Of a DNA stretch of 54,083 bases, positions 1-11,322 are shown one piece after another. The translations under genes and the position numbers were made by a program. The stretch spans positions 1 to 54,083 of the forward strand of contig JAITKB010000034.1 of NCBI GenBank assembly GCA_031278605.1, written 5' to 3'. Source of the stretch: Tannerellaceae bacterium (GTDB lineage: Bacteria; Bacteroidota; Bacteroidia; Bacteroidales; Tannerellaceae). Positions within the stretch are counted from its first letter, which is position 1. Each line of letters begins with the position of its first letter. Under the pieces are notes generated by a model. It saw nothing but the letters and a program-made list of their open reading frames with translations. It did not search any database and had not been told where the DNA came from.

Positions 1-774
1 GGGATCTTTCACCCCGTCGCGCATGAAGCTGATGTCGGAGATGATACCCAGCATATTGTCTTTGTAGGTTTCAAAGACTTCGATGGCTTCCTCGTAGGTA
101 CGGGCCAGGAGGATTTTGGGTCGTCCCCGCATACGCAGGGTGCGTTGGTGGTCGTTCAGGGCTTCCTTGGAGAAGGACTGGCTTTGCTCCAGCACGAAGC
201 GGTAGAGGTGGGGCAGGGCCGAGGAGTAGAAACGGATGGAATCCTCCACCAGGAGGATGATCTGCACGCCGGTGCCGACCGTATCGTACGGGGCGTTCAT
301 CTTGTCTTCTATCAACTTGATGATGGCCAGAAGGAGTTCGGCATTGCCCAGCCAGCTGAACAGGTAGTCAATGGCGCCGAGGTCTTCTCCCTGCACGCGC
401 CGGGCCACTTCCCGGGAAAAGGGCGTGAGCACCACGATGGGGATTGCAGGGTATTGCTTTTTGATTTCCCTGGCGGCGGCAAAGATGTCGCGGTTGTCCA
501 TATTGGGCATACAGATGATGAGTTCAAAGTTCCGGTGGGCAAGTTCCCCCAGGGCTTCTTCCTCGCTGGATACCTGGGTAAAGCGCGGAGGGTAACGAAG
601 GCTTAGGGAGGTGTATTCGTTGAAGATCTGCTCGTCCACCCGTCCGTCGTCTTCGAGCATGAAGGCGTCGTATTTGGTGGCGATCAGCAGCACGTTGTAG
701 ATGCGCTTGTTCATCAGGTTGGCGAAGGAAACGTCCTTCAGGACCAGATTTTTGAAGGAAGGAATGGCCGTCAT
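1..774 (-). CDS. Receiver-like / PEP-utilising protein, N-terminal part
   Basis: The gene starts at 774 and is open to the left edge of the window (258 codons), so its C-terminus is not visible. The ORF track omits it because it has no stop here. The translation shows two receiver-like alpha/beta units. The first has the strands LIICMPN and IPIVVLTPFSR; the second begins with IILLVEDS and reaches GIISDISF, which has the Asp expected of a phosphoacceptor. From memory of the family, this N-terminus matches long Bacteroides proteins that carry a PEP/pyruvate-binding (PEP synthase or pyruvate phosphate dikinase type) region further on. That part lies outside the window, so the enzymatic role is inferred. 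It is divergent from the inositol-phosphate synthase gene. Confidence 0.6.
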   Translation of the reverse strand, partial: MTAIPSFKNLVLKDVSFANLMNKRIYNVLLIATKYDAFMLEDDGRVDEQIFNEYTSLSLRYPPRFTQVSSEEEALGELAHRNFELIICMPNMDNRDIFAAAREIKKQYPAIPIVVLTPFSREVARRVQGEDLGAIDYLFSWLGNAELLLAIIKLIEDKMNAPYDTVGTGVQIILLVEDSIRFYSSALPHLYRFVLEQSQSFSKEALNDHQRTLRMRGRPKILLARTYEEAIEVFETYKDNMLGIISDISFMRDGVKDP

Positions 775-906
775 AAGTTGTTCGTATAGCTATTATTATG
801 TCTGCAAATGAACTCTTTTTTTTCTTACCGGCGGCTATTCTCCGAGGTAAATCGCTAACTGATTGAAACGAAGTCGTGTGACTTTCCCCGCCAAAGCAAT
901 ATGAAC

Positions 907-927
907 CACGAATCACGAACCACGAAC
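907..927. repeat. Three 7-bp tandem repeats upstream of the inositol operon
   Basis: Three consecutive copies of the heptamer CACGAAY lie just upstream of the predicted -7 box of the inositol-phosphate synthase gene, in the divergent intergenic region 775-982. The rest of that region holds a T-run and no recognisable gene. A role as a regulator binding site or slippage-prone spacer is only a guess. Confidence 0.5.
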
Positions 928-939
928 CGCTAAAAAATA

Positions 940-947
940 TACCTTTG
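940..947 (+). promoter_or_regulatory. Bacteroidota -7 box for the inositol-lipid operon
   Basis: TACCTTTG matches the Bacteroidota -7 consensus TAnnTTTG and lies 36 bases before the start codon at 983. No clear TTTG -33 box is seen at the usual distance. Confidence 0.5.
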
Positions 948-982
948 CAATCATACTCATCAAATAATAACATACGACATTT

Positions 983-2287
983 ATGGAAACAACAGTGAAA
1001 GTGAAAGAAGCCGCCGGCAAACTCGGCGTGCTTGTAGTGGGAGTGGGAGGCGCTGTGGCCTCTACGTTTATTGCCGGCACCTTGTCTGTGCGTAAGGGGA
1101 CCGGCCTGCCCGTGGGATCCTTAACGCAATTGGCCACCATCCGCCTGGGTAAACGTAACGAGAATCGTTTCCCTAAGATTAAGGACGTCGTACCCCTGGC
1201 CGCACTCGACGACCTGGTGTTCGGCGGATGGGACATCTTTGAAGAAAACGTATACGAAGCAGCCCTGCACGCCGAAGTGCTCAAACCCGAAGACCTGAAC
1301 GTCGTGAAAGACGAACTGGAAACCATCCGGCCCATGCCCGCCGTCTTCGATCGCAACTTTGTGAAACGCCTGAACGGAACACACGTCAAGCCCACCGCCT
1401 CCCGACGGGCCTATGTCGACCGGCTGAGGGAAGACATCCGAAACTTCAAAGCACAACACCACTGCGAACGGATCGTGGTGATGTGGGCGGCCAGCACCGA
1501 AATCTACATCCCCCAAACCGCCCCGCACGAGAGCCTGGCGGCTTTTGAAAAAGCCCTGGAAGACAACGACACGGAAGCCATCTCCCCCAGCATGTGCTAC
1601 GCCTGGGCCGCCGTGAGCGAAGGAGCCCCCTTTATCATGGGAGCGCCCAACCTCTGCGTGGACATCCCCGCCCTGTGGGAACTCGCCGAAAGGGAAAAGG
1701 CGCCCCTGTGCGGAAAAGACTACAAAACAGGACAAACCCTGCTCAAAACCGTCCTCGCCCCCATGCTCAAAACCCGGATGCTGGGACTCGAAGGCTGGTT
1801 CTCCACCAACATACTCGGCAACCGCGACGGGGAAGTGCTGGACGACCCCGGATCTTTCAAAACCAAGGAAGTAAGCAAACTCTCGGTCATCGACACCATC
1901 CTGCAAACCGAAGTCTACCCCGAACTCTACGGCCATATCTACCACAAGGTGCGCATCAACTACTACCCTCCGCGCAAAGACAACAAAGAGGGATGGGACA
2001 ACATCGACATCGTAGGCTGGCTGGGATACCCCATGCAGCTGAAGGTCGACTTCCTGTGCCGCGACTCGATTCTGGCCGCCCCGCTGTGCTTGGATCTGGT
2101 CCTGTTTGCCGACCTGGCCCTGCGTTGCGGTTTCCACGGCATCCAGTCGTGGCTGTCCTTCTACTTCAAAAGCCCCATGCATGCCCCCGGTCGCGTCCCG
2201 GAACACGACCTGTTCATCCAGCACACGATCCTGAAAAACACGCTCCGGAAAATCATCGGCGAACCCACCCTGGACTACCTGGACTGA
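983..2287 (+). CDS. ino1: Inositol-3-phosphate synthase (MIPS)
   Basis: Converts glucose 6-phosphate to inositol 3-phosphate with catalytic NAD, the committed step of inositol-lipid synthesis. The 434-residue protein has the NAD-binding motif GVGGAVAST at residues 20-28 and the downstream blocks expected of the prokaryotic family (for example MWAASTEIY, SWLSFYFKSP). It is the first gene of a five-gene operon; its TGA shares one base with the ATG of the next gene (TGATG), which suggests translational coupling. The gene order resembles the Bacteroides thetaiotaomicron inositol-lipid cluster (BT_1522 to BT_1526, from memory), which supports a role in phosphoinositol lipids rather than catabolism. 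Confidence 0.92.
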   Translation: METTVKVKEAAGKLGVLVVGVGGAVASTFIAGTLSVRKGTGLPVGSLTQLATIRLGKRNENRFPKIKDVVPLAALDDLVFGGWDIFEENVYEAALHAEVLKPEDLNVVKDELETIRPMPAVFDRNFVKRLNGTHVKPTASRRAYVDRLREDIRNFKAQHHCERIVVMWAASTEIYIPQTAPHESLAAFEKALEDNDTEAISPSMCYAWAAVSEGAPFIMGAPNLCVDIPALWELAEREKAPLCGKDYKTGQTLLKTVLAPMLKTRMLGLEGWFSTNILGNRDGEVLDDPGSFKTKEVSKLSVIDTILQTEVYPELYGHIYHKVRINYYPPRKDNKEGWDNIDIVGWLGYPMQLKVDFLCRDSILAAPLCLDLVLFADLALRCGFHGIQSWLSFYFKSPMHAPGRVPEHDLFIQHTILKNTLRKIIGEPTLDYLD

Positions 2288-3072
2288 TGGATTTCGCAAT
2301 CATAGCCGCCGGGGAAGGCTCCCGTCTGGCCGAAGAAGGCGTCCGGGAACCCAAACCCCTGGTCCCACTACACGGCATCCCCCTGATAGACCGCCTGGTT
2401 GATATTTTCCTTCGCCACGGCGCCACCGCCCTCCACGTGATCGTCAACGAAGAAATGACCGAGGTGCAAAAGCATCTGCAACAGATGAAACTCCCCATCC
2501 CGCTACACCTTACGGTGAAATCCACCCCCGGCCCCGTGCAGAGTTTCTTCTTCCTCAGCCTCCGTTTGCGGGGGGAACGCTTCTGCCTCACGACCGTTGA
2601 TAGCGTCTTCCGGGAAGAGGACTTCAGCCGTTACCTCGACGCCTTCCGGGAGGAAGAGGCCGACGCACTGATGGCCGTTACCGAATACGTCGACGACGAA
2701 AAACCCCTCTACGTCCATACCGACGAACAAGGCTTTATCCGTCGCTTCGCCGACCAAACCCAAAGTCGCTACGTATCGGGCGGAATCTACGGCCTGAAAC
2801 GCTCCGCACTCCGGGTGTTGCAAAACTCCATCCGAAACAACGAACTCCGTATGCGTCATTACCAACGCCGCCTGTTGGCCGAAGGCCTTAGCCTCAAGGC
2901 CTACCCCTTTGGGCAAATCCTGGACATCGACCACGCCTCCGACATTGAAAAAGCCGAACACTTCCTAAATCCACCCTCCTTTACCCCTTCAGCCCATGCA
3001 CCTTATGAACGAACCCACCCTGGCCGGCATCCGGCGTGGAAGACAATTCTCCCCCAACCATGTGGAAAATGA
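2287..3072 (+). CDS. Nucleotidyltransferase of the inositol-lipid operon
   Basis: A 261-residue sugar-nucleotide-type transferase. The N-terminus has the nucleotide-binding signature AAGEGSRL (residues 7-14) followed by KPLVP at 23-27, and TTVDSVF further on is the likely metal-binding Asp segment. By context it probably activates inositol phosphate with an NTP, as in the CTP:inositol-1-phosphate cytidylyltransferases of other prokaryotes, but the substrate is inferred. The start is set by the overlapping TGATG with the synthase gene. The track ORF beginning at 1594 merely extends this frame upstream. The last 25 or so codons overlap the next gene by 77 bases and look like read-through sequence, so the functional C-terminus may end near ASDIEKAEHF. 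Confidence 0.75.
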   Translation: MDFAIIAAGEGSRLAEEGVREPKPLVPLHGIPLIDRLVDIFLRHGATALHVIVNEEMTEVQKHLQQMKLPIPLHLTVKSTPGPVQSFFFLSLRLRGERFCLTTVDSVFREEDFSRYLDAFREEEADALMAVTEYVDDEKPLYVHTDEQGFIRRFADQTQSRYVSGGIYGLKRSALRVLQNSIRNNELRMRHYQRRLLAEGLSLKAYPFGQILDIDHASDIEKAEHFLNPPSFTPSAHAPYERTHPGRHPAWKTILPQPCGK

Positions 3073-3892
3073 CGCGGCCATCTTTGACCTCACCGCCGAA
3101 GAACTCCGCAAACGGGGATGCCTCGTGAAGGAATACCCGGAATCGGCCCTGGAGGAAAACGCCGTGGAAGAAAGCCTCATCTTCCACATGGCACGCGACA
3201 GCCGCTCGGTGCGGAAACTCCAAACCTACGAAAACGAAGGGCGTCTCGTGGTGAACTCGCCCCGGGGAATCCAAAACTGCACCCGCGAAAGCATGACCCG
3301 TCTGCTGCTGGCCAACCACGTCCCGCACCCCAAAAGCCTGATCGTGCCTACCGACATCAACCCCCTGCCCCTGCTTCGCGAGGCAGGAATGCAACGCTGC
3401 TGGATCAAGCGGGGAGACTTCCACGCCGTTTGCCGCGAAGACGTCGCTTACGTCCGGGACCGGGAAGAAGCCCCCGACATCCTGCGAGGCTACGCCCTTC
3501 GGGGAATCAAGCAGGCCGTGATCAACGAACACCTTCGCGGCGACCTGGTGAAGTTCTACGGCGTGCTGGGCACCCGCTTCTTCCATTGGTTTTACCCTTT
3601 GCCGGCCCACCACAGCAAATTCGGTCTGGAGCAAATCAACGGGACGGCCAAAGGCTTCCCTTTCGCCCCCGAAAAACTCCGCAGCCTGTGCAACCGTACA
3701 GCCCGCATCCTGAACACCCAGGTCTACGGGGGAGACTGCATCGTCTCCCCGGAAGGCCTCGTGGACATCATCGACTTCAACGACTGGCCCAGCTTCGCCC
3801 CCTGCCGCAAGGAAGCCGCCCGGTACATTGCCAAACGTATTTATACCCTGATAAGCACCTCATGCGAAACCCAACACCCGATAGTCCGTTAG
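2996..3892 (+). CDS. ATP-grasp-like protein in the inositol-lipid operon
   Basis: A 298-residue protein with an ATP-grasp layout: a nucleotide-binding middle region (NSPRGIQNCTRESM, then CWIKRGD and VINEHLRGDLVKFYG) and a C-terminal catalytic segment IIDFNDWPSFAPCR that resembles the metal-binding Asp/Asn motif of RimK-like and inositol-phosphate-kinase ATP-grasp enzymes. No specific family member is recognised. Its place between the nucleotidyltransferase and the CDP-alcohol transferase suggests an ATP-dependent step on inositol or its lipid, which is inference. An alternative start is the ATG at 3005 (MNEPTL). It overlaps the genes on both sides. Confidence 0.65.
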   Translation: MHLMNEPTLAGIRRGRQFSPNHVENDAAIFDLTAEELRKRGCLVKEYPESALEENAVEESLIFHMARDSRSVRKLQTYENEGRLVVNSPRGIQNCTRESMTRLLLANHVPHPKSLIVPTDINPLPLLREAGMQRCWIKRGDFHAVCREDVAYVRDREEAPDILRGYALRGIKQAVINEHLRGDLVKFYGVLGTRFFHWFYPLPAHHSKFGLEQINGTAKGFPFAPEKLRSLCNRTARILNTQVYGGDCIVSPEGLVDIIDFNDWPSFAPCRKEAARYIAKRIYTLISTSCETQHPIVR

Positions 3893-4797
3893 TTGCCAGC
3901 TTCAAGTCCATGGACACGGAAGAGTTCCTCGACATCCACTTCTACCGCCCCCTGGGCTATGCCTGGGCGATCGCCTTTAGGAAATGGGGCGTCCACCCCA
4001 ACAGCGTTACCCTGGCGGCGATCCTTTTGGGCATCGCCGCGGGGATTTGCTTTTATTTCCGCGACCTCCGGGTGAACATCCCCGGCATGTTGCTCTTAGT
4101 GTGGGCCAATACCTACGACAGCGCCGACGGACAGTTGGCCCGCATGACCCGCCGGACCTCCCCGCTGGGACGTATGCTGGACGGCTTCTGCGGACAAGCC
4201 TGGTTCGTCACCATCTACGCCGCCATCTGCCTCCGCCTGACACCCGAATGGGGCCTGTGGATCTGGCTGCTGGGAGCCATAACCGGATACGGCCACAGCC
4301 GGCAGGCAGCCCTGGCCGACTATTACAGGAACCTGCATCTGCTCTTTCTGAAAGGAAAAGCGGGCAGCGAACTCTCCGATAGCGCTACCCTAAGGATCGA
4401 GGCCCGGGGTTTGTCCCGGAAGGAAAACCCTCTCCTTTGGCTCGGCAACCTCCTCTACCTGAATTACACCAGGGGGCAGGAAAAACACACCCCCCGCCTG
4501 CAAGCCCTGATGGAGGTTCTCCACTCCAAGTACAACGGCCAAGCCCCGGCCTGGTTCCGGGAATCCTTCTGCCGGGAAAGCCTCCCGCTGATGAAGTACG
4601 CCAACATCCTGTCGTTCAATACGCGCTCCATCGTCCTTTTCCTGGCCCTTCTGGTCGACCTTCCCTGGCTCTACTTCGTGTTTGAGCTTACCCTTATGAA
4701 CCTCCTGCTGGTGTACATGGTCGCAAAACACGAACACTTTTGCACCACCTTCACCGAACAATTAAACAACCAACCGAAAGAAACATGTTCCACTTAA
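3862..4797 (+). CDS. CDP-alcohol phosphatidyltransferase, probable phosphatidylinositol-phosphate synthase
   Basis: An integral membrane enzyme of 311 residues that should join an inositol phosphate head group to a CDP-activated lipid (or the reverse activation). The family signature is present as DSADGQLAR followed by GRMLDG. The usual last Asp of D-x2-DG-x2-AR-x8-G-x3-D-x3-D is replaced: the sequence reads DGFCGQ. Several hydrophobic helices surround it (SVTLAAILLGIAAGI, SIVLFLALLVDLPWLYFV). The start at 3862 is the first ATG of this frame with a matching N-terminus and overlaps the ATP-grasp gene by 31 bases; the ORF track shows a longer, non-genic extension from 3118. An internal start at 3910 is also possible. 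Confidence 0.8.
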   Translation: MRNPTPDSPLVASFKSMDTEEFLDIHFYRPLGYAWAIAFRKWGVHPNSVTLAAILLGIAAGICFYFRDLRVNIPGMLLLVWANTYDSADGQLARMTRRTSPLGRMLDGFCGQAWFVTIYAAICLRLTPEWGLWIWLLGAITGYGHSRQAALADYYRNLHLLFLKGKAGSELSDSATLRIEARGLSRKENPLLWLGNLLYLNYTRGQEKHTPRLQALMEVLHSKYNGQAPAWFRESFCRESLPLMKYANILSFNTRSIVLFLALLVDLPWLYFVFELTLMNLLLVYMVAKHEHFCTTFTEQLNNQPKETCST

Positions 4798-5519
4798 GCA
4801 ACCTGAAAGGCATCCTCTTCGATTACGGCGGCACGATAGACACCAACGGCACGCACTGGGCAGAGGTGCTGTGGGAATCCTATCAAACCCTGGGAATCCC
4901 CGTGACAAAGGAATCCTTCCGCAAAGCCTACGTCCACGCCGAGCAAACGCTGGGGCACGACGGCGCAGTATCCCCTTCCCTCGGCTTCCGCCTCCTGCTG
5001 GAAAGCAAAGCGCAGCTCCAGCTCCAGTGGCTAAAGGATCAAAACCTCCTGGCAAAGAAGGAACACACCCTATCCCTGGCCGCAGCCATCTCCGCCCGGG
5101 GCTTCTCCTATGCCCAAACAACCGTCAACGCCCTTGGCCAAAAACTCCTGCAACCCCTGGCCGCACGGTATCCCCTCGTGTTGGTGTCGAATTTCTACGG
5201 CAACCTCCACGCCGTCCTGGCGGATTTCCGCCTGGAAGAAGTGTTTGCCTGTGTGATTGAATCCGCCGCGGTGGGCGTTCGCAAACCCGACCCGGCGATT
5301 TACCGGCTGGGGCTGGAGCAATTGAGACTTCTCCCCGAAGAGGTCCTCGTCGTTGGCGACTCCTACACGAACGACATCCTCCCGGCCGCAAGCCTCGGAT
5401 GCCACACCGTCTGGCTGAAAAAGTCCGGATGGGAAGGAGATGAACAAGGGAAGGGGAAGGAAACGCCCGGCATCGTCATCCGGGACCTGATGGAGTTAAG
5501 GGAAATCGTTCGTTTATGA
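4785..5519 (+). CDS. HAD-family hydrolase, probable phosphatidylinositol-phosphate phosphatase
   Basis: A 244-residue HAD-superfamily protein. Motif I is FDYGGTID, motif II lies in LVLVSNFYGN, motif III is KPDPAIY and motif IV is VVGDSYTND. Motif I keeps the nucleophile Asp but has Gly where most HAD phosphatases have the second, acid/base Asp. As the last gene of the inositol-lipid operon it is the natural candidate to dephosphorylate the phosphoinositol lipid; this follows from context, not from the sequence alone. The start at 4785 (MFHLSNLKG) is preferred to the track start at 4740, because it overlaps the transferase gene by only 13 bases and gives a normal HAD N-terminus. Its stop overlaps the end of the convergent transporter gene. 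Confidence 0.78.
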   Translation: MFHLSNLKGILFDYGGTIDTNGTHWAEVLWESYQTLGIPVTKESFRKAYVHAEQTLGHDGAVSPSLGFRLLLESKAQLQLQWLKDQNLLAKKEHTLSLAAAISARGFSYAQTTVNALGQKLLQPLAARYPLVLVSNFYGNLHAVLADFRLEEVFACVIESAAVGVRKPDPAIYRLGLEQLRLLPEEVLVVGDSYTNDILPAASLGCHTVWLKKSGWEGDEQGKGKETPGIVIRDLMELREIVRL

Positions 5520-6413
5520 GCGCTGCCGCTTCTTCCACAACTGATAACTGTTGATGATGTTTTGCCACAAAACATAGGCGGCAGGAGCCACCGAAGAAAC
5601 CGGATGAAGATAAGCCTGGGCAATCCAGATAGCCAGGATGGTGTTCTTCTGCCCCAAACCCTGCCCGCAGGAAACCGGGTCGCCGTAATGCCGCCCGATG
5701 CGGCGGCCCAGCAGAAACTGACCCGCACAGATCCCCAGCGACACAAGAGCCAGCGCTATCTCCGTGCGGTAATCGGGATTCTCTTCGTCGGCCAGGAATC
5801 CCACCGTTTTGGCCGTCACCACCGTGAGGGCTATCGCCCAGAGGTAGAACGAGAGGTTCCCCAGGCGCTGCATCCGGGCATTCACCCCGGGCAGGGCGTA
5901 GCGGATAAACCAAGCCGACAGCAAGGGACAAAGCAGCACAGGAGCTACCCGACAAAAGATGTGGAACAGGGAATCCGTAAACAACAAATCCGCATGGGAG
6001 CCTGCCAGGGGCAAAAACAACGGGGCAAGCATCGCCACGCCCAGGTTGCACAACAGCAAATAACTCGTGAGAAACCCCACGTTGCCTCCCAATAATCCCG
6101 TAACAACGGCCGCCGAAGTAGCCGTGGGCGCCAGTACACAGATAAAGGCGCCCTGCGCCACCACGGGATTGTACCACATCAGCAGAGCATATACCGCCAT
6201 GCTGCCGATCAATTGGATCAGCAGCAGCCAGCCGTGGGCAGGGCGAACTGCCACGGCGCGGGGCGACAGTTTGCAGAAGGTCAGCAGCAACATGGCAAAT
6301 ATCAGATAGGGCGTAAGGAAAGCAAGGCAGCTTATCCACCGATAAGCCGCCACTCCCAGGAGCATGGCCACAGCCAGCGCCTGGTTCTTTAGGATTCCCA
6401 GGATCTTTGCCAC
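5514..6413 (-). CDS. Bile acid:sodium symporter (BASS)-like membrane transporter
   Basis: A 299-residue, almost wholly hydrophobic protein with about nine or ten predicted membrane helices. The Gly- and Pro-rich stretch LAPTATSAAVVTGLLGG and the later GQKNTILAIWIAQ match the conserved BASS segments. The family carries organic anions with sodium; the substrate here is not predictable. It follows the NagB/PIG-L fusion after only 3 bases, so the two are probably co-transcribed. The stop codon overlaps the end of the convergent HAD gene by 6 bases. Confidence 0.75.
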   Translation of the reverse strand: MAKILGILKNQALAVAMLLGVAAYRWISCLAFLTPYLIFAMLLLTFCKLSPRAVAVRPAHGWLLLIQLIGSMAVYALLMWYNPVVAQGAFICVLAPTATSAAVVTGLLGGNVGFLTSYLLLCNLGVAMLAPLFLPLAGSHADLLFTDSLFHIFCRVAPVLLCPLLSAWFIRYALPGVNARMQRLGNLSFYLWAIALTVVTAKTVGFLADEENPDYRTEIALALVSLGICAGQFLLGRRIGRHYGDPVSCGQGLGQKNTILAIWIAQAYLHPVSSVAPAAYVLWQNIINSYQLWKKRQRS

Positions 6414-6416
6414 TTT

Positions 6417-8405
6417 TTATGGAAGGGGTATGTATTGCACGAAAGCCTCGATGGCTTCGTAGGCGGCGAGGCCCAACTGCCGGTAGAGGTCGGCCGTAGC
6501 GCGGTTGCGGTCTTCGGCGCGTTGCCAGAACAGGCGTTCGTCGTTCCCCAGGAACGGGGCGCTTTCGGCCTGCGACTGATGGCGCAGGATGGCATTCCGC
6601 TTGCTGCGCAGTTCTTCGGGGCTGATGGGCACGGCCATTTCGATGTGATCCATTTCCCATTCCGCCCAGGCCCCGCGATACATCCAGATGCGGCATTGCT
6701 TCATCCAGGCTTCATCCTTCAACTCGTCGATGGCGGCCAAGGCTGCGTCGAGGCATACCTTGTGCGTCCCGTGCGGGTCGGCCAGGTCGCCGGCTACGAA
6801 GACCTGGTCGGGCCGTATCTCCTGCAGAAAGTTGCGAACGATTTTCACATCCTCCTCGCCCAGGTCTTTCTTCTTCACCGTGCCGGTTTCGTAGAAGGGA
6901 AGGTCAAGGAAGCGGATGCGTGACTCGTTCGTGATTCCCGAATAACGTGCCGCCGCGCGGGCTTCTTCCCGTCGGATGGTGCCTTTCATGAAGAGCACAT
7001 CGTCTTTTTCCCTTTCGCCTTCCTTCTTTTCGTGGCGCAGGTAGCGGATGATTTCTTCGGCTTTCTGTCGCAGGGTTTGTTCGCCGGGCGAGTAGCGGCG
7101 GCATACGTCGCAGAGGTATTCGCAATAGCGGAGCACTTCCTCGTCGCCCACGGCAATATTGCCGGAGGTCTGATAGGCCACATACACCTCGTGTCCCTGC
7201 CGGCAAAGGCGATGGAAGGTGCCGCCCATGGAGATCACATCGTCGTCGGGATGGGGGCTGAAGATGATCACCTTTTTGGGATAAGGCAGCGCTCGTTCGG
7301 GGCGATTCGAGTCCTCCGCATGGGGCTTCCCGCCCGGCCATCCGGTGATGGTGTGCTGTATGTCGTTAAATATCTTAATGTTCACGTTGTAGGCCGAGCC
7401 GTACAGGGCCAGGAGTTCTCCCAATCCGTTTTCGCTGTAATCCTTATTGGTCAGTTTCAGGATCGGCTTGCCGGTCAGCCGGCAGAGCCGGACGATGGCC
7501 CGACGTATCAGCTTATTGTCCCATTCGCAGCTTGTTACCAGCCAGGGACGGTCGATGCGCGTGAGTTGTCCGGCGGCCGTGAGGTCTATAACGGCCCGGA
7601 CGTTGCGGGCGCTTTGCAGACAGGATGCCGGCAGGCTGTCGGAGGCATTGCCTTCCACGGCTTCCCGGATGATCCCGGCTTTGCTTTCTCCCCAGGCCAT
7701 CAGGCGGATTTGCCGGGCGTTCAGCAACGTGGACATGCCCATGGTGATAACCCCGGCCGGCACATTCTCTACCGATCCGAAGATGCGGGCCGCCTCCTTG
7801 CGCGAATCGTTATCGAGCAGGATCAAACGCGTGGCGGTATTGGCGCCGGAGCCGGGACCGTTGAAACTGATATTGCCTGCATGTCCGATGCCCAGCAGGA
7901 CGGCGTCTATGCCGCCGACCCGTTTGATTTCCTGTTCGTAGTGGAGGCAAAAATCCAGAAGGTGTTCCTTGGGCATAAACCCGTCGGGGGAATAAATGTT
8001 TTCGGGCAACACATCCACATGATCCAGGAAATAATCCTTCAGGTAAGCCAAGTTGCTGTAAGCCTCCGAGCTAAGCGGGTAAAACTCATAGAGGTTAAAC
8101 ACGATTACGTTCCGGAAGCTGAGTTGTTCTTCCCTGTGCAGGCGGATCCATTCCCTGAAAACGCTTTGCGGGGTCCGTCCTCCCGGCAGGGCCAGGACGA
8201 AGGCTTGGTGGTTGGTTTGTTTTTCGCGGATTTGCGCCGCGATTTCTCCGGCAATAAGCCGTGAGCCTTCGTCGGTGGATTCGCACACCAGGGTAGGGAT
8301 CTTTTCAAAGCGGGTGACTACCGACTGTTCGTAGTCATTGGCCGGACGATAATACCGCGCAGGTATTCGTGTGAGTGAAATCCGGGAACTTAAATTTGTT
8401 TTCAT
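6417..8405 (-). CDS. Glucosamine-6-phosphate deaminase-like / PIG-L deacetylase fusion
   Basis: A 662-residue two-domain protein. Residues about 30-290 resemble NagB (LALPGGRTPQSVFREW, GIGHAGNISFNGPGS), and residues about 375-640 form a PIG-L/LmbE de-N-acetylase with the zinc motif PHPDDDVI and a second motif DPHGTH. The same fusion occurs in Bacteroides genomes. The NagB half looks catalytically altered: the usual MDEY around the catalytic Asp reads LYEFY, and the GDGH motif carrying the catalytic His reads HAGN, so deamination activity is doubtful while the deacetylase half looks intact. It probably acts in the cytoplasm on an N-acetylated sugar; no signal peptide is seen. Confidence 0.85.
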   Translation of the reverse strand: MKTNLSSRISLTRIPARYYRPANDYEQSVVTRFEKIPTLVCESTDEGSRLIAGEIAAQIREKQTNHQAFVLALPGGRTPQSVFREWIRLHREEQLSFRNVIVFNLYEFYPLSSEAYSNLAYLKDYFLDHVDVLPENIYSPDGFMPKEHLLDFCLHYEQEIKRVGGIDAVLLGIGHAGNISFNGPGSGANTATRLILLDNDSRKEAARIFGSVENVPAGVITMGMSTLLNARQIRLMAWGESKAGIIREAVEGNASDSLPASCLQSARNVRAVIDLTAAGQLTRIDRPWLVTSCEWDNKLIRRAIVRLCRLTGKPILKLTNKDYSENGLGELLALYGSAYNVNIKIFNDIQHTITGWPGGKPHAEDSNRPERALPYPKKVIIFSPHPDDDVISMGGTFHRLCRQGHEVYVAYQTSGNIAVGDEEVLRYCEYLCDVCRRYSPGEQTLRQKAEEIIRYLRHEKKEGEREKDDVLFMKGTIRREEARAAARYSGITNESRIRFLDLPFYETGTVKKKDLGEEDVKIVRNFLQEIRPDQVFVAGDLADPHGTHKVCLDAALAAIDELKDEAWMKQCRIWMYRGAWAEWEMDHIEMAVPISPEELRSKRNAILRHQSQAESAPFLGNDERLFWQRAEDRNRATADLYRQLGLAAYEAIEAFVQYIPLP

Positions 8406-8437
8406 TATGCGTTGCTTTTTTATTATTTATCGGGAAG

Positions 8438-8445
8438 CAAAAGTA
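8438..8445 (-). promoter_or_regulatory. -7 box for the NagB/PIG-L fusion gene
   Basis: On the minus strand this reads TACTTTTG, matching TAnnTTTG, 33 bases before the start codon at 8405. No -33 box is clear. Confidence 0.45.
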
Positions 8446-8488
8446 ATAAAAAAAAGACGAGGCCTCCCCCGCGTTGGGGGGATGGGGG

Positions 8489-8597
8489 CTATTCCTTCCA
8501 AATGCAGTGAATGGGGTAGTGCTTAATCAAATGGGCTGGTTCAACAGGAAGGATCTCAAAACCAGATATACGCTTGTGTGTCTATCAGCAATCTCAT
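8489..8597 (-). pseudogene. Remnant of a PIN-domain (VapC-type) toxin gene
   Basis: The minus strand starts with an ATG that overlaps the antitoxin stop (ATGA) and encodes MRLLIDTQAYIWF, the typical N-terminus of VapC toxins including the first active-site Asp, then hits a TGA. One base shifted, the frame continues as GFEILPVEPAHLIKHYPIH, which resembles the middle of the same toxin family, and ends at 8489. The part between (roughly 50 or more residues) and the C-terminus with the remaining catalytic residues are missing. This looks like an internal deletion plus frameshift. It is too short for the ORF track. Confidence 0.7.
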
Positions 8598-8815
8598 TCG
8601 ATGTAATCTTTCAAGTCATCCGGTGTGTCATTGAAATCGTCGCTCATCCAGGTAACCGTACCTTTCATGCAGCCGAAAAAAGGTTTGCCGGGTTTATCCG
8701 TTTGGTACTTTTGCGACAAAAATTCGATGTAATCCGATAGCTCATGCTGCACTCTCGGCGGGAGTTGATGTATCCTTTTATACAGTGTATCCGTCACGGG
8801 GTTTTCCGATATCAT
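8594..8815 (-). CDS. DUF2281-type antitoxin (VapB-like)
   Basis: A 73-residue protein with the DUF2281 pattern: a short helix region (LYKRIHQLPPRVQHELSDYIEFLSQ) and a C-terminal GCMKGTVTWMSDDFNDTPDD segment of the kind that neutralises VapC toxins. The start at 8815 is chosen because a good promoter ends shortly before it. The track ORF starting at 9082 only adds frame read through the 22-bp repeat array. The gene looks intact, whereas its downstream partner is broken, so it may be a leftover or a solitary antitoxin. Confidence 0.72.
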   Translation of the reverse strand: MISENPVTDTLYKRIHQLPPRVQHELSDYIEFLSQKYQTDKPGKPFFGCMKGTVTWMSDDFNDTPDDLKDYIE

Positions 8816-8842
8816 ATCCGTATTCTTTAAATGTATTTGATA

Positions 8843-8874
8843 CAAAGATAAGTCTTGCCTGGGGTTGCTGCAAA
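8843..8874 (-). promoter_or_regulatory. Promoter of the antitoxin gene
   Basis: On the minus strand, TTTG (8874-8871) is followed after 20 bases by TATCTTTG (8850-8843), matching the Bacteroidota -33/-7 pair. The -33 box lies inside the edge of the 22-bp repeat array, so the array could influence this promoter. Confidence 0.6.
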
Positions 8875-8997
8875 TTCGCAGCCGAGCGACTGCGATTTCG
8901 CAGCCGGGCGGCTGCGATTTCGCAGCCGAGCGACTGCGATTTCGCAGCCGAGCGGCTGCAAGTTCGCAGCCGAGCGGCTGCGAATTCGCAGCAAACC
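8862..8997. repeat. 22-bp tandem array A with palindromic core
   Basis: Units beginning TTCGCAG fall at 8875, 8897, 8919, 8941, 8963 and 8985, an exact 22-bp period, with five full units and a partial sixth. The core GCAGCCGAGCGGCTGC is a near-perfect dyad; in the second unit the arms are GCAGCCG and CGGCTGC. The outer edges of the array are near inverted copies of each other (GTTGCTGC at the left, GCAGCAAAC at the right). All frames through it stay open, which creates spurious ORFs in the track. It lies between the divergent antitoxin and PlsC-like genes, in a 291-base gap without other genes. Confidence 0.9.
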
Positions 8998-9017
8998 GAA
9001 GCCGCGGGACGCAGGCG

Positions 9018-9037
9018 GGGAAAAGCCGGCTTTTCCC
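9018..9037. repeat. 20-bp perfect palindrome
   Basis: GGGAAAAGCC followed directly by GGCTTTTCCC, a perfect self-complementary sequence between array A and the acyltransferase promoter. It could be a regulator site or a small hairpin. Confidence 0.6.
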
Positions 9038-9047
9038 ACGAAAGACG

Positions 9048-9078
9048 TTGGCAGGAAAACGAAAAAGATCTAATTTTA
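9048..9078 (+). promoter_or_regulatory. Possible promoter of the PlsC-like gene
   Basis: TTG at 9048 is followed after 20 bases by TAATTTTA, one mismatch from TAnnTTTG, 28 bases before the start codon at 9107. Confidence 0.35.
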
Positions 9079-9106
9079 CCACCCGTAATTAATCCTCAGA
9101 TATCGA

Positions 9107-9850
9107 ATGACACGCACAATTTACCCGGTATACTTCTGGGTGTTTTTCTTACCCGTTTTTTTGGTTCTTACCCTGCTTACGGCCCTGGTTACCCTCGCAG
9201 GCTGTTTGCTGGGAGGCAAACGCATCTTTTCCTATTACCCGGGGATGCTCTGGTCGCGAACGGTTTGCGCCCTGGCGCTCTGCCCCGTCAAGGTGAGCGG
9301 ACGCGAACATATCCGAAGGAATCAATCCTATGTCTTTGTGTCGAATCACCAGGGGGCTTTCGACATTTTCCTTATCTATGGCTTCCTGGGCGTTCCCGTT
9401 AAATGGATGATGAAGGCAGGACTTCGCAAAATACCCCTGGTGGGCGCCGCCTGCCGGGCTGCCGGGTTTATTTTTGTGGAACATTCCACGCCCCAGGCGG
9501 CGGCCCGCAGCGTGAAAGAAGCCGAAGTCTCACTCCAAAAAGGCGCTTCCATAGCCATATTCCCGGAAGGCTCGCGCACGCCCAACGGACGAATGCAACG
9601 CTTCAAGAAAGGAGCCTTCCAAATCGCTGCCGACCTGCATCTGCCCATCCTGCCCATCACCCTGAACGGCCCTTACCGCGTCTTGCCCATCGGGGCCCTG
9701 AGGGTGAAACCGCACCGCATGGAAATGATTATCCACCCTCCCCTTGCCACCCAGGACCGCACCCGGCAAGGAGCCAGGGAATTGCAGGAATTAGCCGAAC
9801 AAACCCAGGCCGTCATTGCCTCGGCCCTGTGGCCGGAGTTCCTCCCTTAG
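9107..9850 (+). CDS. plsC: 1-acyl-glycerol-3-phosphate acyltransferase (PlsC family)
   Basis: A 247-residue membrane-associated enzyme that should transfer an acyl chain to lysophosphatidic acid in phospholipid synthesis. An N-terminal hydrophobic helix (residues about 8-36) is followed by the catalytic motif NHQGAFD (His 81, Asp 86) and the substrate-binding motif FPEGSRT around residue 150. A second PlsC-family gene lies at 31567. The stop codon overlaps the stop of the convergent Wzi-like gene. Confidence 0.88.
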   Translation: MTRTIYPVYFWVFFLPVFLVLTLLTALVTLAGCLLGGKRIFSYYPGMLWSRTVCALALCPVKVSGREHIRRNQSYVFVSNHQGAFDIFLIYGFLGVPVKWMMKAGLRKIPLVGAACRAAGFIFVEHSTPQAAARSVKEAEVSLQKGASIAIFPEGSRTPNGRMQRFKKGAFQIAADLHLPILPITLNGPYRVLPIGALRVKPHRMEMIIHPPLATQDRTRQGARELQELAEQTQAVIASALWPEFLP

Positions 9851-11322
9851 AAGTTTCCCCTGGCAACCCCGAAGCCGAAGCCGAGGGTTTGACCCGTAAA
9901 CTCCCCCGCGTCGGCAGCCAGGCTGCCCGTAAAGCGCCACCCCGGAAGACGGGAGGGGCGGAAGCCGATCTCCACCAGGGCCGAAAGACCCTTGCGGTTG
10001 TTCAGGAACGGACGATAGGGCGTCCCCCAGGAATCCATCCCGGTGAACAGCACCCGATAGGCCAGGGGAGAGGAAAGCCGGCCGGAGAATCCGAGATGCC
10101 AGGCGTACACCCGGATGTTCCGGAAGCCCGGCGAACCGTCGGTATTGTACTCCGGCGAAGGAAGAAGCGGGCTGCCGAGGCTGCGGTTGAAGTAAGACAG
10201 GCCCGTGGTGTACTCCTGGTTGTTATAATAGCGGTCGGCCCCGCCGCCTATGCCCGGATAGGCCTCGTGGTCGAAGGCAATGAAGTGCAATGAACCGCTT
10301 TGGTTGCGCGTGTCCAAACATTCCACAAGGAGTTTCTGCAACAAAGGCCGGCCTTCAAGCTCCAAACCAATACCCCACAGGCCGTCCCTCCCGTTGAGGA
10401 AGATCATCCCCGATTTGTCTTCAAAGTAATGCTGGTGGTAGGCTTGCAGGGCCCAATGCTCCCGTTTGTAGGTCAGCCGGATGTCGTAGGAGCCGTATTG
10501 ATTGCCCAGGGCATTGCTCCGGTCCATTTCCGAGGCCTCTTCGCTGCCCGCCATCCCGGCTACAACCCGGAGGAAATCGGCGGGCGACTGAGGTTGCCGT
10601 CCCACAGCCGGGTCGGTGGACGTCCCCCCCCACTGCACGCCGTGCTGCATCCCCAACTCCAAAAACAACGCAAGGCGACCCGGCGACCCGATCCGGAAGA
10701 AAATCGCCTTGTGATGCCACAGGATATCCTTTATATAGACCTGTTGGTCGCCGACAAACCAAGCCAGGTAATCCCTGTCGAAGGATCGACCGAGGGAGAA
10801 ATCCCCTTTCACCGCCAGCCTTCCGCCGGTTTTCGGCACCGGGGCATAATCCGGCAAACGGAGCTCGACCTTGGGAATGGGACGGGCATTGGAGGAGAAA
10901 ACCATATCGCCCGAACTGAGGCTTTTCTCCCATAAGCCTCCGCCCTCTTCCCTGCTCCCCAGGGTGAATGAAAGGGAACGATACCTCAGCTCGGCGTAAA
11001 GCTGCCGGACAAATACCTTCCGGTAACGAGGCGCCGCCAGGGCCAAATCCACGCCTGCCTCCCAACGGAATCCCCCACCCGGCAAACCCCCGTAGCTCAA
11101 TCCGGCGCTCATATACCCGTTGCCGGCCGGCAAAGGCACCAGCCCGTAGCGGTTGCTCACCAACCAGAAAGGCGTGTATCGCCCCGAAGCCGCCGAGGTG
11201 AACATCTCGGTCTTATAAAGAAGTCTTCCCGGAGGATTCTCCGTCTGGGCAAAACCCGGAAGGGTTGCCCCCAAGGCCAGGGCCAGGGCCAGGGCTAATG
11301 CTGTAAAATGCTTGCTGTTCAT
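9847..11322 (-). CDS. Capsule-assembly Wzi-family outer-membrane protein
   Basis: A 491-residue exported protein with a signal peptide (hydrophobic Leu/Ala run ending GFAQ) and alternating amphipathic strands and aromatic residues typical of an outer-membrane beta-barrel. It matches the Bacteroidota Wzi-type proteins (segments SAASGRYTPFWLVSNRYG and LYAELRYRSLSFTLGSRE); Wzi helps attach or organise capsule at the cell surface. The start at 11322 is preferred over 11361, because the latter falls inside the predicted -7 box. The stop overlaps that of plsC, leaving no room for a separate terminator. Confidence 0.75.
   Translation of the reverse strand: MNSKHFTALALALALALGATLPGFAQTENPPGRLLYKTEMFTSAASGRYTPFWLVSNRYGLVPLPAGNGYMSAGLSYGGLPGGGFRWEAGVDLALAAPRYRKVFVRQLYAELRYRSLSFTLGSREEGGGLWEKSLSSGDMVFSSNARPIPKVELRLPDYAPVPKTGGRLAVKGDFSLGRSFDRDYLAWFVGDQQVYIKDILWHHKAIFFRIGSPGRLALFLELGMQHGVQWGGTSTDPAVGRQPQSPADFLRVVAGMAGSEEASEMDRSNALGNQYGSYDIRLTYKREHWALQAYHQHYFEDKSGMIFLNGRDGLWGIGLELEGRPLLQKLLVECLDTRNQSGSLHFIAFDHEAYPGIGGGADRYYNNQEYTTGLSYFNRSLGSPLLPSPEYNTDGSPGFRNIRVYAWHLGFSGRLSSPLAYRVLFTGMDSWGTPYRPFLNNRKGLSALVEIGFRPSRLPGWRFTGSLAADAGEFTGQTLGFGFGVARGNF
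11275..11295. repeat. Hexanucleotide repeat within the Wzi signal peptide
   Basis: Three perfect copies of GGCCAG plus a partial one encode the alternating Leu-Ala run of the signal peptide. Copy-number change would alter signal-peptide length by two residues without a frameshift. Confidence 0.7.

What the first reader, a model, noticed from the sequence alone, without database searches (positions are those of the whole stretch)
2996..3892. An ATP-grasp protein inside the inositol-lipid operon
The gene is locked between the nucleotidyltransferase and the CDP-alcohol transferase by overlaps on both sides, so it probably belongs to the pathway. Its C-terminal IIDFNDWPSF segment resembles the catalytic end of ATP-grasp enzymes, a group that includes inositol-phosphate kinases. 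This may mean an extra phosphorylation or ligation (for example an amino acid) on the inositol head group, a step not part of the pathway as I know it.
Basis: inference. Interest (0 to 1): 0.65.

Follow-up and report, generated by a model that had tools for sequence, protein, structure and literature searches.

The report
Likely ATP-grasp kinase in inositol-lipid operon
A gene that public annotation calls a 'hypothetical protein' is an ATP-using enzyme present in every copy examined of a bacterial gene set for making inositol lipids, and it probably adds a temporary phosphate to the inositol ring, a step missing from the published pathway of gut bacteria.

Summary
The ORF (start more likely 3005 than 2996; end 3892) lies in MIPS–nucleotidyltransferase (NTP)–ORF–CDP-alcohol transferase (CAP)–HAD, the 'alternative' Bacteroidetes inositol-lipid cluster of Heaver 2022. 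That paper's text never mentions this gene. Pfam has no hit, but an AlphaFold2 model (pLDDT 93.7) has a clear ATP-grasp fold. It is an obligate cluster member: all 42 genomes with it have the cluster's CAP type where the contig allows, and vice versa. It is fused to the NTP in four loci.

Fold alone does not separate kinase from ligase. A profile search of the PDB puts inositol-phosphate kinases (ITPK) first (E 1.8e-5), and the metal motif D...D-x-N-x-x-P-S-F (67/67) is ITPK-like; ligases use E-x-N.

Best explanation: it phosphorylates MIPS's inositol-3-phosphate; the NTP makes a CDP-inositol-phosphate, CAP moves it onto ceramide, and HAD removes the extra phosphate. Related AG-less, HAD-less clusters have a true inositol-phosphate cytidylyltransferase instead, as this predicts. 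Fold and linkage are shown; kinase activity, site and order are inferred. Amino-acid ligation is less likely but not excluded. Outside the class, clusters add an aminotransferase and an inositol-dehydrogenase-like gene, suggesting amino-inositol lipids.

The parts
983..2287 (+). myo-inositol-phosphate synthase (MIPS)
   Evidence: Pfam NAD_binding_5 8.9e-104 and Inos-1-P_synth 5.9e-33
2287..3072 (+). sugar-nucleotidyltransferase-like protein (NTP), putative cytidylyltransferase; the ~28 C-terminal residues are absent in relatives
   Evidence: Pfam NTP_transf_3 7.8e-14 and NTP_transferase 6.9e-12; only weakly like inositol-phosphate cytidylyltransferase (31 bits); alignment A4
3005..3892 (+). 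ATP-grasp protein (AG), putative inositol-phosphate kinase; alternative upstream start at 2996
   Evidence: AF2 pLDDT 93.7, Foldseek PDB ATP-grasp, ITPK profile hits, alignments A1, A2, A5
3725..3796 (+). metal-binding motif YGGDCIVSPEGLVDIIDFNDWPSF (D244, D257, N259 counted from the Met at 3005)
   Evidence: GGD...D-x-N-x-x-P-S-F in 67/67 homologues; D244, D257, N259, P262, S263, F264 invariant
3862..4797 (+). CDP-alcohol phosphotransferase (CAP), head-group transferase
   Evidence: Pfam CDP-OH_P_transf 1.1e-9; PDB profile hits AF2299 8.9e-12 and choline/ethanolaminephosphotransferase 9.2e-5
4785..5519 (+). HAD-family hydrolase, putative phosphatase of the lipid intermediate
   Evidence: Pfam Hydrolase 3.6e-14 and HAD_2 5.2e-12; motif I FDYGGT

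Best explanation
The gene encodes an ATP-grasp enzyme that is an obligate part of the 'alternative' bacterial inositol-lipid pathway and most likely acts as an inositol-phosphate kinase. Proposed order: MIPS makes 1D-myo-inositol 3-phosphate. The ATP-grasp enzyme adds a second phosphate to the ring (O-1 would give the same D-1 linkage as the B. thetaiotaomicron route, but the position is a guess). The fused or adjacent NTP turns the bisphosphate into a CDP-inositol-phosphate. CAP transfers it to ceramide, giving a phosphorylated phosphoinositol-ceramide. The HAD removes the remaining phosphate to give phosphoinositol dihydroceramide. Shown here: fold, conserved active-site motif, obligate linkage, fusion with the NTP, absence of the B. 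thetaiotaomicron-type PIP synthase from the (84.5% complete) genome. Inferred: phosphorylation, substrate, position, order of steps and the HAD's substrate.
For: (1) Fold: AF2 pLDDT 93.7; Foldseek hits ATP-grasp enzymes including StITPK1 1.7e-12 and human ITPK1 3.7e-12. (2) Profile of 65-67 members against PDB sequences: Entamoeba ITPK best (7e-6 / 1.8e-5), then graspetide ligase PsnB 1.8e-4, AtITPK4 5e-4, human ITPK1 4e-3, ArgX 0.016. (3) D-x-N-x-x-P-S-F in 67/67, as DLNYLPSF in AtITPK4, DVNVFPSY in Entamoeba ITPK and DINAFPGY in human ITPK1; ligases show E-x-N: PsnB ELNASAMF, this genome's own D-Ala ligase EINTVPGM. (4) Linkage: cluster-type CAP downstream in 100/100 loci, NTP upstream in 94/102, HAD in 75/78; genome-wide 1:1 with that CAP. 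(5) NTP-AG fused ORFs in L067, L078, L090, L133; CAP-HAD fused in L090 and reported in P. veroralis (PMC9246714). Kinase-nucleotidyltransferase fusions are a known type (FKP, HldE; from knowledge). (6) Natural control: MIPS-CAP-NTP clusters with neither AG nor HAD nearby (L155, L158); the NTP of L155 is a clear inositol-phosphate cytidylyltransferase relative (133 bits, 1.7e-38) against 31 bits for the AG-linked NTP, consistent with a different substrate. (7) Precedent: the ATP-grasp kinase ITPK1 phosphorylates Ins3P, the MIPS product (PMC7618535). (8) B. vulgatus makes Cer-PI but no diacyl-PI (PMC10056535), so the HAD is not needed to move inositol from PI to ceramide.
Against: No activity data. 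Fold similarity is as high to ligases (D-Ala ligase, RimK, ArgX, PsnB) as to ITPK. Among NCBIfam models, which may hold no ITPK model, the nearest are glutamate ligases MptN 2.5e-6 and RimK 1.9e-5. Pfam's ITPK model does not hit the window protein. ITPK1 acts slowly on Ins3P and prefers higher inositol phosphates. The HAD has Gly where HAD phosphatases usually have the second Asp (D-Y-G-G-T). The loop after K135 differs from ITPK. Six loci lack a nearby NTP.
Confidence: 0.55

Rival explanations
1. Phosphate relocation: the HAD (or another phosphatase) first turns Ins3P into free inositol, and the ATP-grasp enzyme is an inositol kinase making Ins1P for the NTP, so that the lipid gets the D-1 linkage.
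For: Same kinase evidence as the best explanation; it also explains why a HAD goes with AG and why the NTP is unlike Ins3P-using cytidylyltransferases.
Against: The HAD is fused to CAP, not to AG or MIPS, in L090 and in P. veroralis (PMC9246714), which points to a late, lipid-linked step. The known ATP-grasp inositol kinases act on phosphorylated inositols.
Confidence: 0.13
2. Amino-acid (or other carboxylate) ligase: the enzyme joins a carboxylate to the inositol or to an activated intermediate, decorating the head group, as RimK or D-Ala ligases do.
For: Equal fold similarity to ligases; MptN/RimK are the nearest NCBIfam models; clusters outside the class carry an aminotransferase that could supply an amine.
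Against: D-x-N instead of the ligase E-x-N in 67/67; inositol offers no amine or carboxylate; Bacteroidales clusters have no aminotransferase between AG and CAP; a cluster-bearing species has unmodified phosphoinositol dihydroceramide by MS (PMC9246714, PMC10056535).
Confidence: 0.15
3. Kinase whose phosphate stays: the end product is a doubly phosphorylated (PIP-like) inositol ceramide, unseen because ordinary extraction loses such lipids.
For: Kinase evidence as above; Heaver et al. saw PIP-DAG of B. thetaiotaomicron only after a PIP-optimised extraction (PMC9246714).
Against: HAD is kept in 75/78 loci and is sometimes fused to CAP; plain phosphoinositol ceramide is found in cluster-bearing species.
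Confidence: 0.08
4. Other role: the ATP-grasp protein acts on something outside the inositol head group (the lipid acceptor, a regulator, or an NTP partner subunit).
For: No direct biochemical evidence for any substrate.
Against: 1:1 linkage with the CAP and fusion to the NTP; full conservation of the catalytic motif; the paralogous CAP2 modules examined have no AG.
Confidence: 0.09

Closest known systems
Bacteroides vulgatus-type 'alternative' inositol-lipid cluster (Heaver et al. 2022, PMC9246714: BVU_RS13095 NTP, RS13105 CAP, RS13115 HAD)
   Same: Same gene order MIPS-NTP-x-CAP-(LPG_synthase_TM)-HAD; B. finegoldii carries it with AG annotated 'hypothetical protein'. By locus-tag order BVU_RS13100 should be this gene, though that sequence was not inspected.
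   Different: The published scheme has no ATP-grasp step and no ATP use: CDP-inositol is made straight from inositol phosphate, and the HAD is proposed as an AUR1-like PI-DHC synthase.
Inositol tris/tetrakisphosphate kinases (ITPK, PF05770)
   Same: ATP-grasp fold; metal motif D...D-x-N-x-x-P-[SG]-[FY]; ITPKs lead the profile search of the PDB; ITPK1 accepts Ins3P (PMC7618535).
   Different: Not hit by the Pfam ITPK model; about 15-17% identity; different ATP-loop sequence (K-R-G-D-x-H); bacterial lipid operon context; substrate unknown.
RimK / MptN / LysX-ArgX and D-Ala-D-Ala ligases
   Same: ATP-grasp fold, weak NCBIfam similarity to RimK and MptN.
   Different: D-x-N instead of E-x-N; far below all curated cut-offs; no amine or carboxylate partner in the core pathway.
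CDP-inositol phospholipid pathway (Jorge et al. 2015, known here through its citation in PMC9246714 and PMC10191378) and DIP synthesis (IPCT/DIPPS)
   Same: MIPS + sugar-nucleotidyltransferase + CDP-alcohol transferase; homologous CAP.
   Different: The AG-less clusters (L155, L158) have a true IPCT-like NTP (tested for L155) and no ATP-grasp or HAD nearby.
B. thetaiotaomicron BT_1522-1526 pathway
   Same: Starts from MIPS; a phosphorylated lipid intermediate (PIP-DAG) is dephosphorylated.
   Different: Uses CDP-DAG + Ins-P (PIPS), PgpA-like phosphatase and AUR1-like synthase; BT_1524 is a GtrA membrane protein unrelated to this gene; no BT_1523-type PIPS above cut-off in this genome.

Membership tests
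ATP-grasp superfamily | ATP-grasp three-dimensional fold | tested here: met
   AF2 pLDDT 93.7, pTM 0.90; 665 PDB matches at E<=0.001, top ones ATP-grasp
ATP-grasp superfamily | Conserved nucleotide-binding Lys and acidic/Asn metal ligands | tested here: met
   K135, K183, D244, D257, N259 invariant in 65 sequences; assignment of K135 and K183 to nucleotide binding is by analogy
ITPK family (PF05770) | Match to the curated family model | tested here: not met
   No Pfam hit for the window protein; 1 of 67 homologues at E 0.0047; PF05770 finds nothing in the own genome
ITPK family (PF05770) | D...D-x-N-x-x-P metal motif | tested here: met
   67/67 homologues; aligned to ITPK chains
ITPK family (PF05770) | ATP-dependent phosphorylation of inositol phosphates | not testable with these tools
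   Needs enzyme assay
RimK/MptN/LysX amino-acid ligases | Match to curated family model | tested here: not met
   26.8 of 350 bits (MptN), 24.2 of 143.4 (RimK), 22.9 of 275.6 (LysX)
RimK/MptN/LysX amino-acid ligases | E-x-N metal motif | tested here: not met
   D-x-N in 67/67; ligases in the same and related genomes have E-x-N
Heaver 'alternative' inositol-lipid cluster | NTP, CDP-alcohol transferase and HAD near MIPS | tested here: met
   homologous named loci
Heaver 'alternative' inositol-lipid cluster | Production of phosphoinositol dihydroceramide by the organism | not testable with these tools
   The window comes from an assembled genome; shown in the literature for B. vulgatus and P. veroralis (PMC9246714)
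B. thetaiotaomicron-type PIP-synthase pathway | BT_1523-type PIP synthase in the genome | tested here: not met
   NF052561: only a 25-bit match (cut-off 350) to the paralogous CAP2; genome 84.5% complete

The most novel reading that the evidence does not exclude
Many Bacteroidota carry a dedicated ITPK-like kinase that makes inositol bisphosphate on the way to CDP-inositol-phosphate, so soluble inositol polyphosphate chemistry of the eukaryotic kind would be a routine lipid-building step in gut bacteria. In some members outside the class the enzyme is duplicated and joined by an inositol-dehydrogenase-like protein, a class III aminotransferase and an MlaEFD-like transporter, to make and move amino-inositol lipids.
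Probability: 0.33. Interest if true: 0.8.

Novelty: new variant of a known kind. Interest (0 to 1): 0.6.

Why it matters
Inositol sphingolipids of gut Bacteroidetes affect bacterial fitness in mice and resistance to antimicrobial peptides. The route used by many Bacteroidales, including Prevotella and Parabacteroides relatives, has only a proposed scheme, and that scheme leaves out a gene present in every copy of the cluster examined here. Adding an ATP-grasp step gives the HAD a plausible substrate, explains why the NTP is unlike inositol-phosphate cytidylyltransferases, and makes the pathway testable with four purified proteins. If the enzyme is an inositol-phosphate kinase it is a bacterial counterpart of ITPK, a family described in eukaryotes and Lokiarchaeota (PMC8024741).

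Tried and rejected
BT_1524 as the counterpart: rejected, it is a GtrA-like membrane protein (PMC9246714, PMC8791184). Single-sequence phmmer against PDB found nothing; only the family profile gave hits. The viral contig scan found no homologue. Foldseek could not tell kinase from ligase. Folding the NTP-AG fusion L067 without an alignment failed (pLDDT 31.9), so no statement on domain contacts. PF05770 and PF08443 genome searches gave no close relatives of this protein. A regular-expression scan for ligase motifs failed at first; motifs were then read from the translated ligases. Apparent losses of AG in L035, L051 and L056 were ORF-caller artefacts. Heaver's idea that the HAD is the PI-DHC synthase is not supported: B. 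vulgatus has Cer-PI but no diacyl-PI.

Full report
WHAT IS THERE. The window is contig C64 of a Bacteroidales genome (84.5% complete). Positions 983-5519 hold five same-strand genes: MIPS, a nucleotidyltransferase (NTP), the gene in question (AG), a CDP-alcohol phosphotransferase (CAP) and a HAD hydrolase. AG overlaps both neighbours as reported. The start at 3005 is likelier than 2996, because relatives begin at MNE. The 5' overlap reflects an NTP C-terminal extension not seen in relatives.

THE CLUSTER IS KNOWN, THE GENE IS NOT DISCUSSED. Heaver et al. [quoted passage not shown] vulgatus and Prevotella: BVU_RS13095 (NTP), RS13105 (CAP), RS13115 (HAD), next to MIPS. Its main text names neither RS13100 nor any ATP-grasp enzyme; a full-text search for ATP-grasp + inositol lipid + Bacteroidetes found no paper. 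Named records show the same order with this protein annotated 'hypothetical protein': Parabacteroides distasonis, Bacteroides finegoldii, Prevotella nigrescens. That RS13100 is this gene follows from locus-tag order and was not checked by sequence. Supplements of the paper could not be read.

FOLD AND FAMILY. Pfam gives no hit and NCBIfam only sub-threshold RimK/MptN/LysX matches. A 65-sequence alignment gave an AlphaFold2 model with pLDDT 93.7 and pTM 0.90. Foldseek against PDB returns ATP-grasp enzymes throughout: D-Ala ligases, PsnB, RimK, ArgX/LysX and ITPKs, all at 1e-14 to 1e-11, so the fold is certain and the chemistry is not. The family profile against PDB sequences ranks Entamoeba ITPK first (7e-6 with 67 sequences, 1.8e-5 with 65), with AtITPK4 and human ITPK1 also found; PsnB and ArgX are the only ligases. 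The metal motif is GGD...D-x-N-x-x-P-S-F in 67 of 67 homologues. ITPKs have the same acidic/Asn pattern (DLNYLPSF, DVNVFPSY, DINAFPGY), while ligases have Glu: PsnB ELNASAMF, the genome's own D-Ala ligase EINTVPGM, and a related biotin-carboxylase-like protein EMNTRLQVE. Other invariant residues include R11, D23, E46, R94, K135, D146, R166 and K183.

LINKAGE. In 105 loci examined, the cluster-type CAP lies directly downstream or one gene away in 100 of 100 with enough flank, NTP upstream in 94 of 102 (83 directly; L174 and L175 have it a little further), HAD in 75 of 78 and MIPS in 33 of 58. MIPS can be elsewhere, as Heaver et al. noted. Across whole genomes the CAP profile separates into a cluster type (over 410 bits) and weaker paralogues. 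In the close set, 31 genomes have AG; 29 of them have cluster-type CAP above 450 bits and the other two end at contig ends next to AG; no genome has that CAP without AG. In an even sample of 297 phylum genomes the same 12 have both. AG is fused to NTP in single ORFs of 513-540 aa in L067, L078, L090 and L133; L133 is only 46-51% identical to the others and comes from another family, so fusion probably arose more than once. L090 also fuses CAP to HAD, as reported for P. veroralis.

NATURAL CONTROLS. Two other arrangements lack AG. MIPS-CAP-NTP clusters in other members of the phylum (L155, L158) have no AG or HAD nearby; the NTP of L155 is a clear relative of inositol-phosphate cytidylyltransferase (133 bits, E 1.7e-38), against 31 bits for the AG-linked NTP of the window. 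This resembles the published CDP-inositol phospholipid route. Second, a paralogous CAP2 (G000:C101) lies beside an SPT-like PLP enzyme, an acyltransferase and a DAG kinase, and in L152 beside a CTP_transf_like protein, with no AG or HAD. So AG and HAD come as a pair, and the NTP differs when AG is present.

MECHANISM. The simplest reading is that AG adds a phosphate to the MIPS product, the NTP uses the new substrate, CAP transfers the head group and HAD removes the extra phosphate. ITPK1, an ATP-grasp kinase, phosphorylates Ins3P (PMC7618535). B. vulgatus makes Cer-PI but no diacyl-PI (PMC10056535), so CAP probably acts on ceramide directly and the HAD need not be a PI-to-ceramide transferase. 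The genome lacks a B. thetaiotaomicron-type PIP synthase. Shown: fold, motif, linkage, fusions, contrast with AG-less clusters. Inferred: kinase activity, substrate, position, order, HAD role. Weak points: fold does not discriminate; the HAD motif I is D-Y-G-G-T, lacking the usual second Asp; no chemistry was measured.

EXPANDED CLUSTERS. In 9 of 13 clusters examined from the more distant AG lineages (all 9 outside the class), the set NTP-MlaE-MlaF-MlaD-AG(-AG)-aminotransferase-CAP-Gfo/Idh-LPG_synthase_TM-HAD-MIPS occurs with minor changes of order; the class III aminotransferase and the Gfo/Idh protein always occur together. The Gfo/Idh protein's best NCBIfam model is inositol 2-dehydrogenase (6.4e-19, well below its cut-off). 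In four clusters AG is a tandem pair, and the second copies form a clade with the single AG of an aminotransferase-bearing cluster (100/99), with a further one nearby at 92/84. Amino-inositol lipids moved by an Mla-type transporter would fit; this is inference.

VERDICT.

Noticed in passing
L123, L124, L126, L128-L131, L174, L175 (related loci outside the class): Inositol-lipid clusters carry MlaE/MlaF/MlaD-like genes plus a class III aminotransferase and a Gfo/Idh oxidoreductase nearest to inositol 2-dehydrogenase, always together, sometimes with two tandem ATP-grasp genes: possible amino-inositol lipid synthesis and transport.
   Followed up: partly
window 3862-4797 and homologues: The CAP lacks the fourth Asp of the CDP-alcohol transferase motif (D-x2-D-G-x2-A-R..G-x3-D-x3-D): Gly is invariant there (G111) in all 21 aligned, and also in the CAP2 paralogue, while AG-less MIPS-linked CAPs (L155, L158) keep Asp.
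   Followed up: partly
window 4785-5519 and homologues: The HAD motif I is D-[YF]-G-[GA]-T in 102 of 112 homologues, with Gly in place of the usual second catalytic Asp.
   Followed up: partly
G000:C101 (L151 5868-12237): A second CAP (CAP2) of the same genome sits beside an SPT-like PLP enzyme, an acyltransferase and a DAG-kinase-like gene; in L152/L153 beside a CTP_transf_like cytidylyltransferase, an SDR and LPG_synthase_TM. Possibly the ceramide phosphoethanolamine branch.
   Followed up: partly
window 2287-3072: The NTP of the window has a ~28-residue C-terminal extension overlapping AG that relatives lack; could be lineage-specific or an assembly or sequence error.
   Followed up: no
window 6417-8405 (-): A 662-aa ORF that looks by eye like a glucosamine-6-phosphate deaminase-like domain followed by a PIG-L-like deacetylase domain (HPDDD motif); not searched.
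   Followed up: no
L134 (G056) 333-10141: A genome of the same order carries an AG that groups with those from outside the class, next to a second CAP + IPCT-like NTP + class I/II aminotransferase cassette; suggests transfer or a second head-group pathway.
   Followed up: partly
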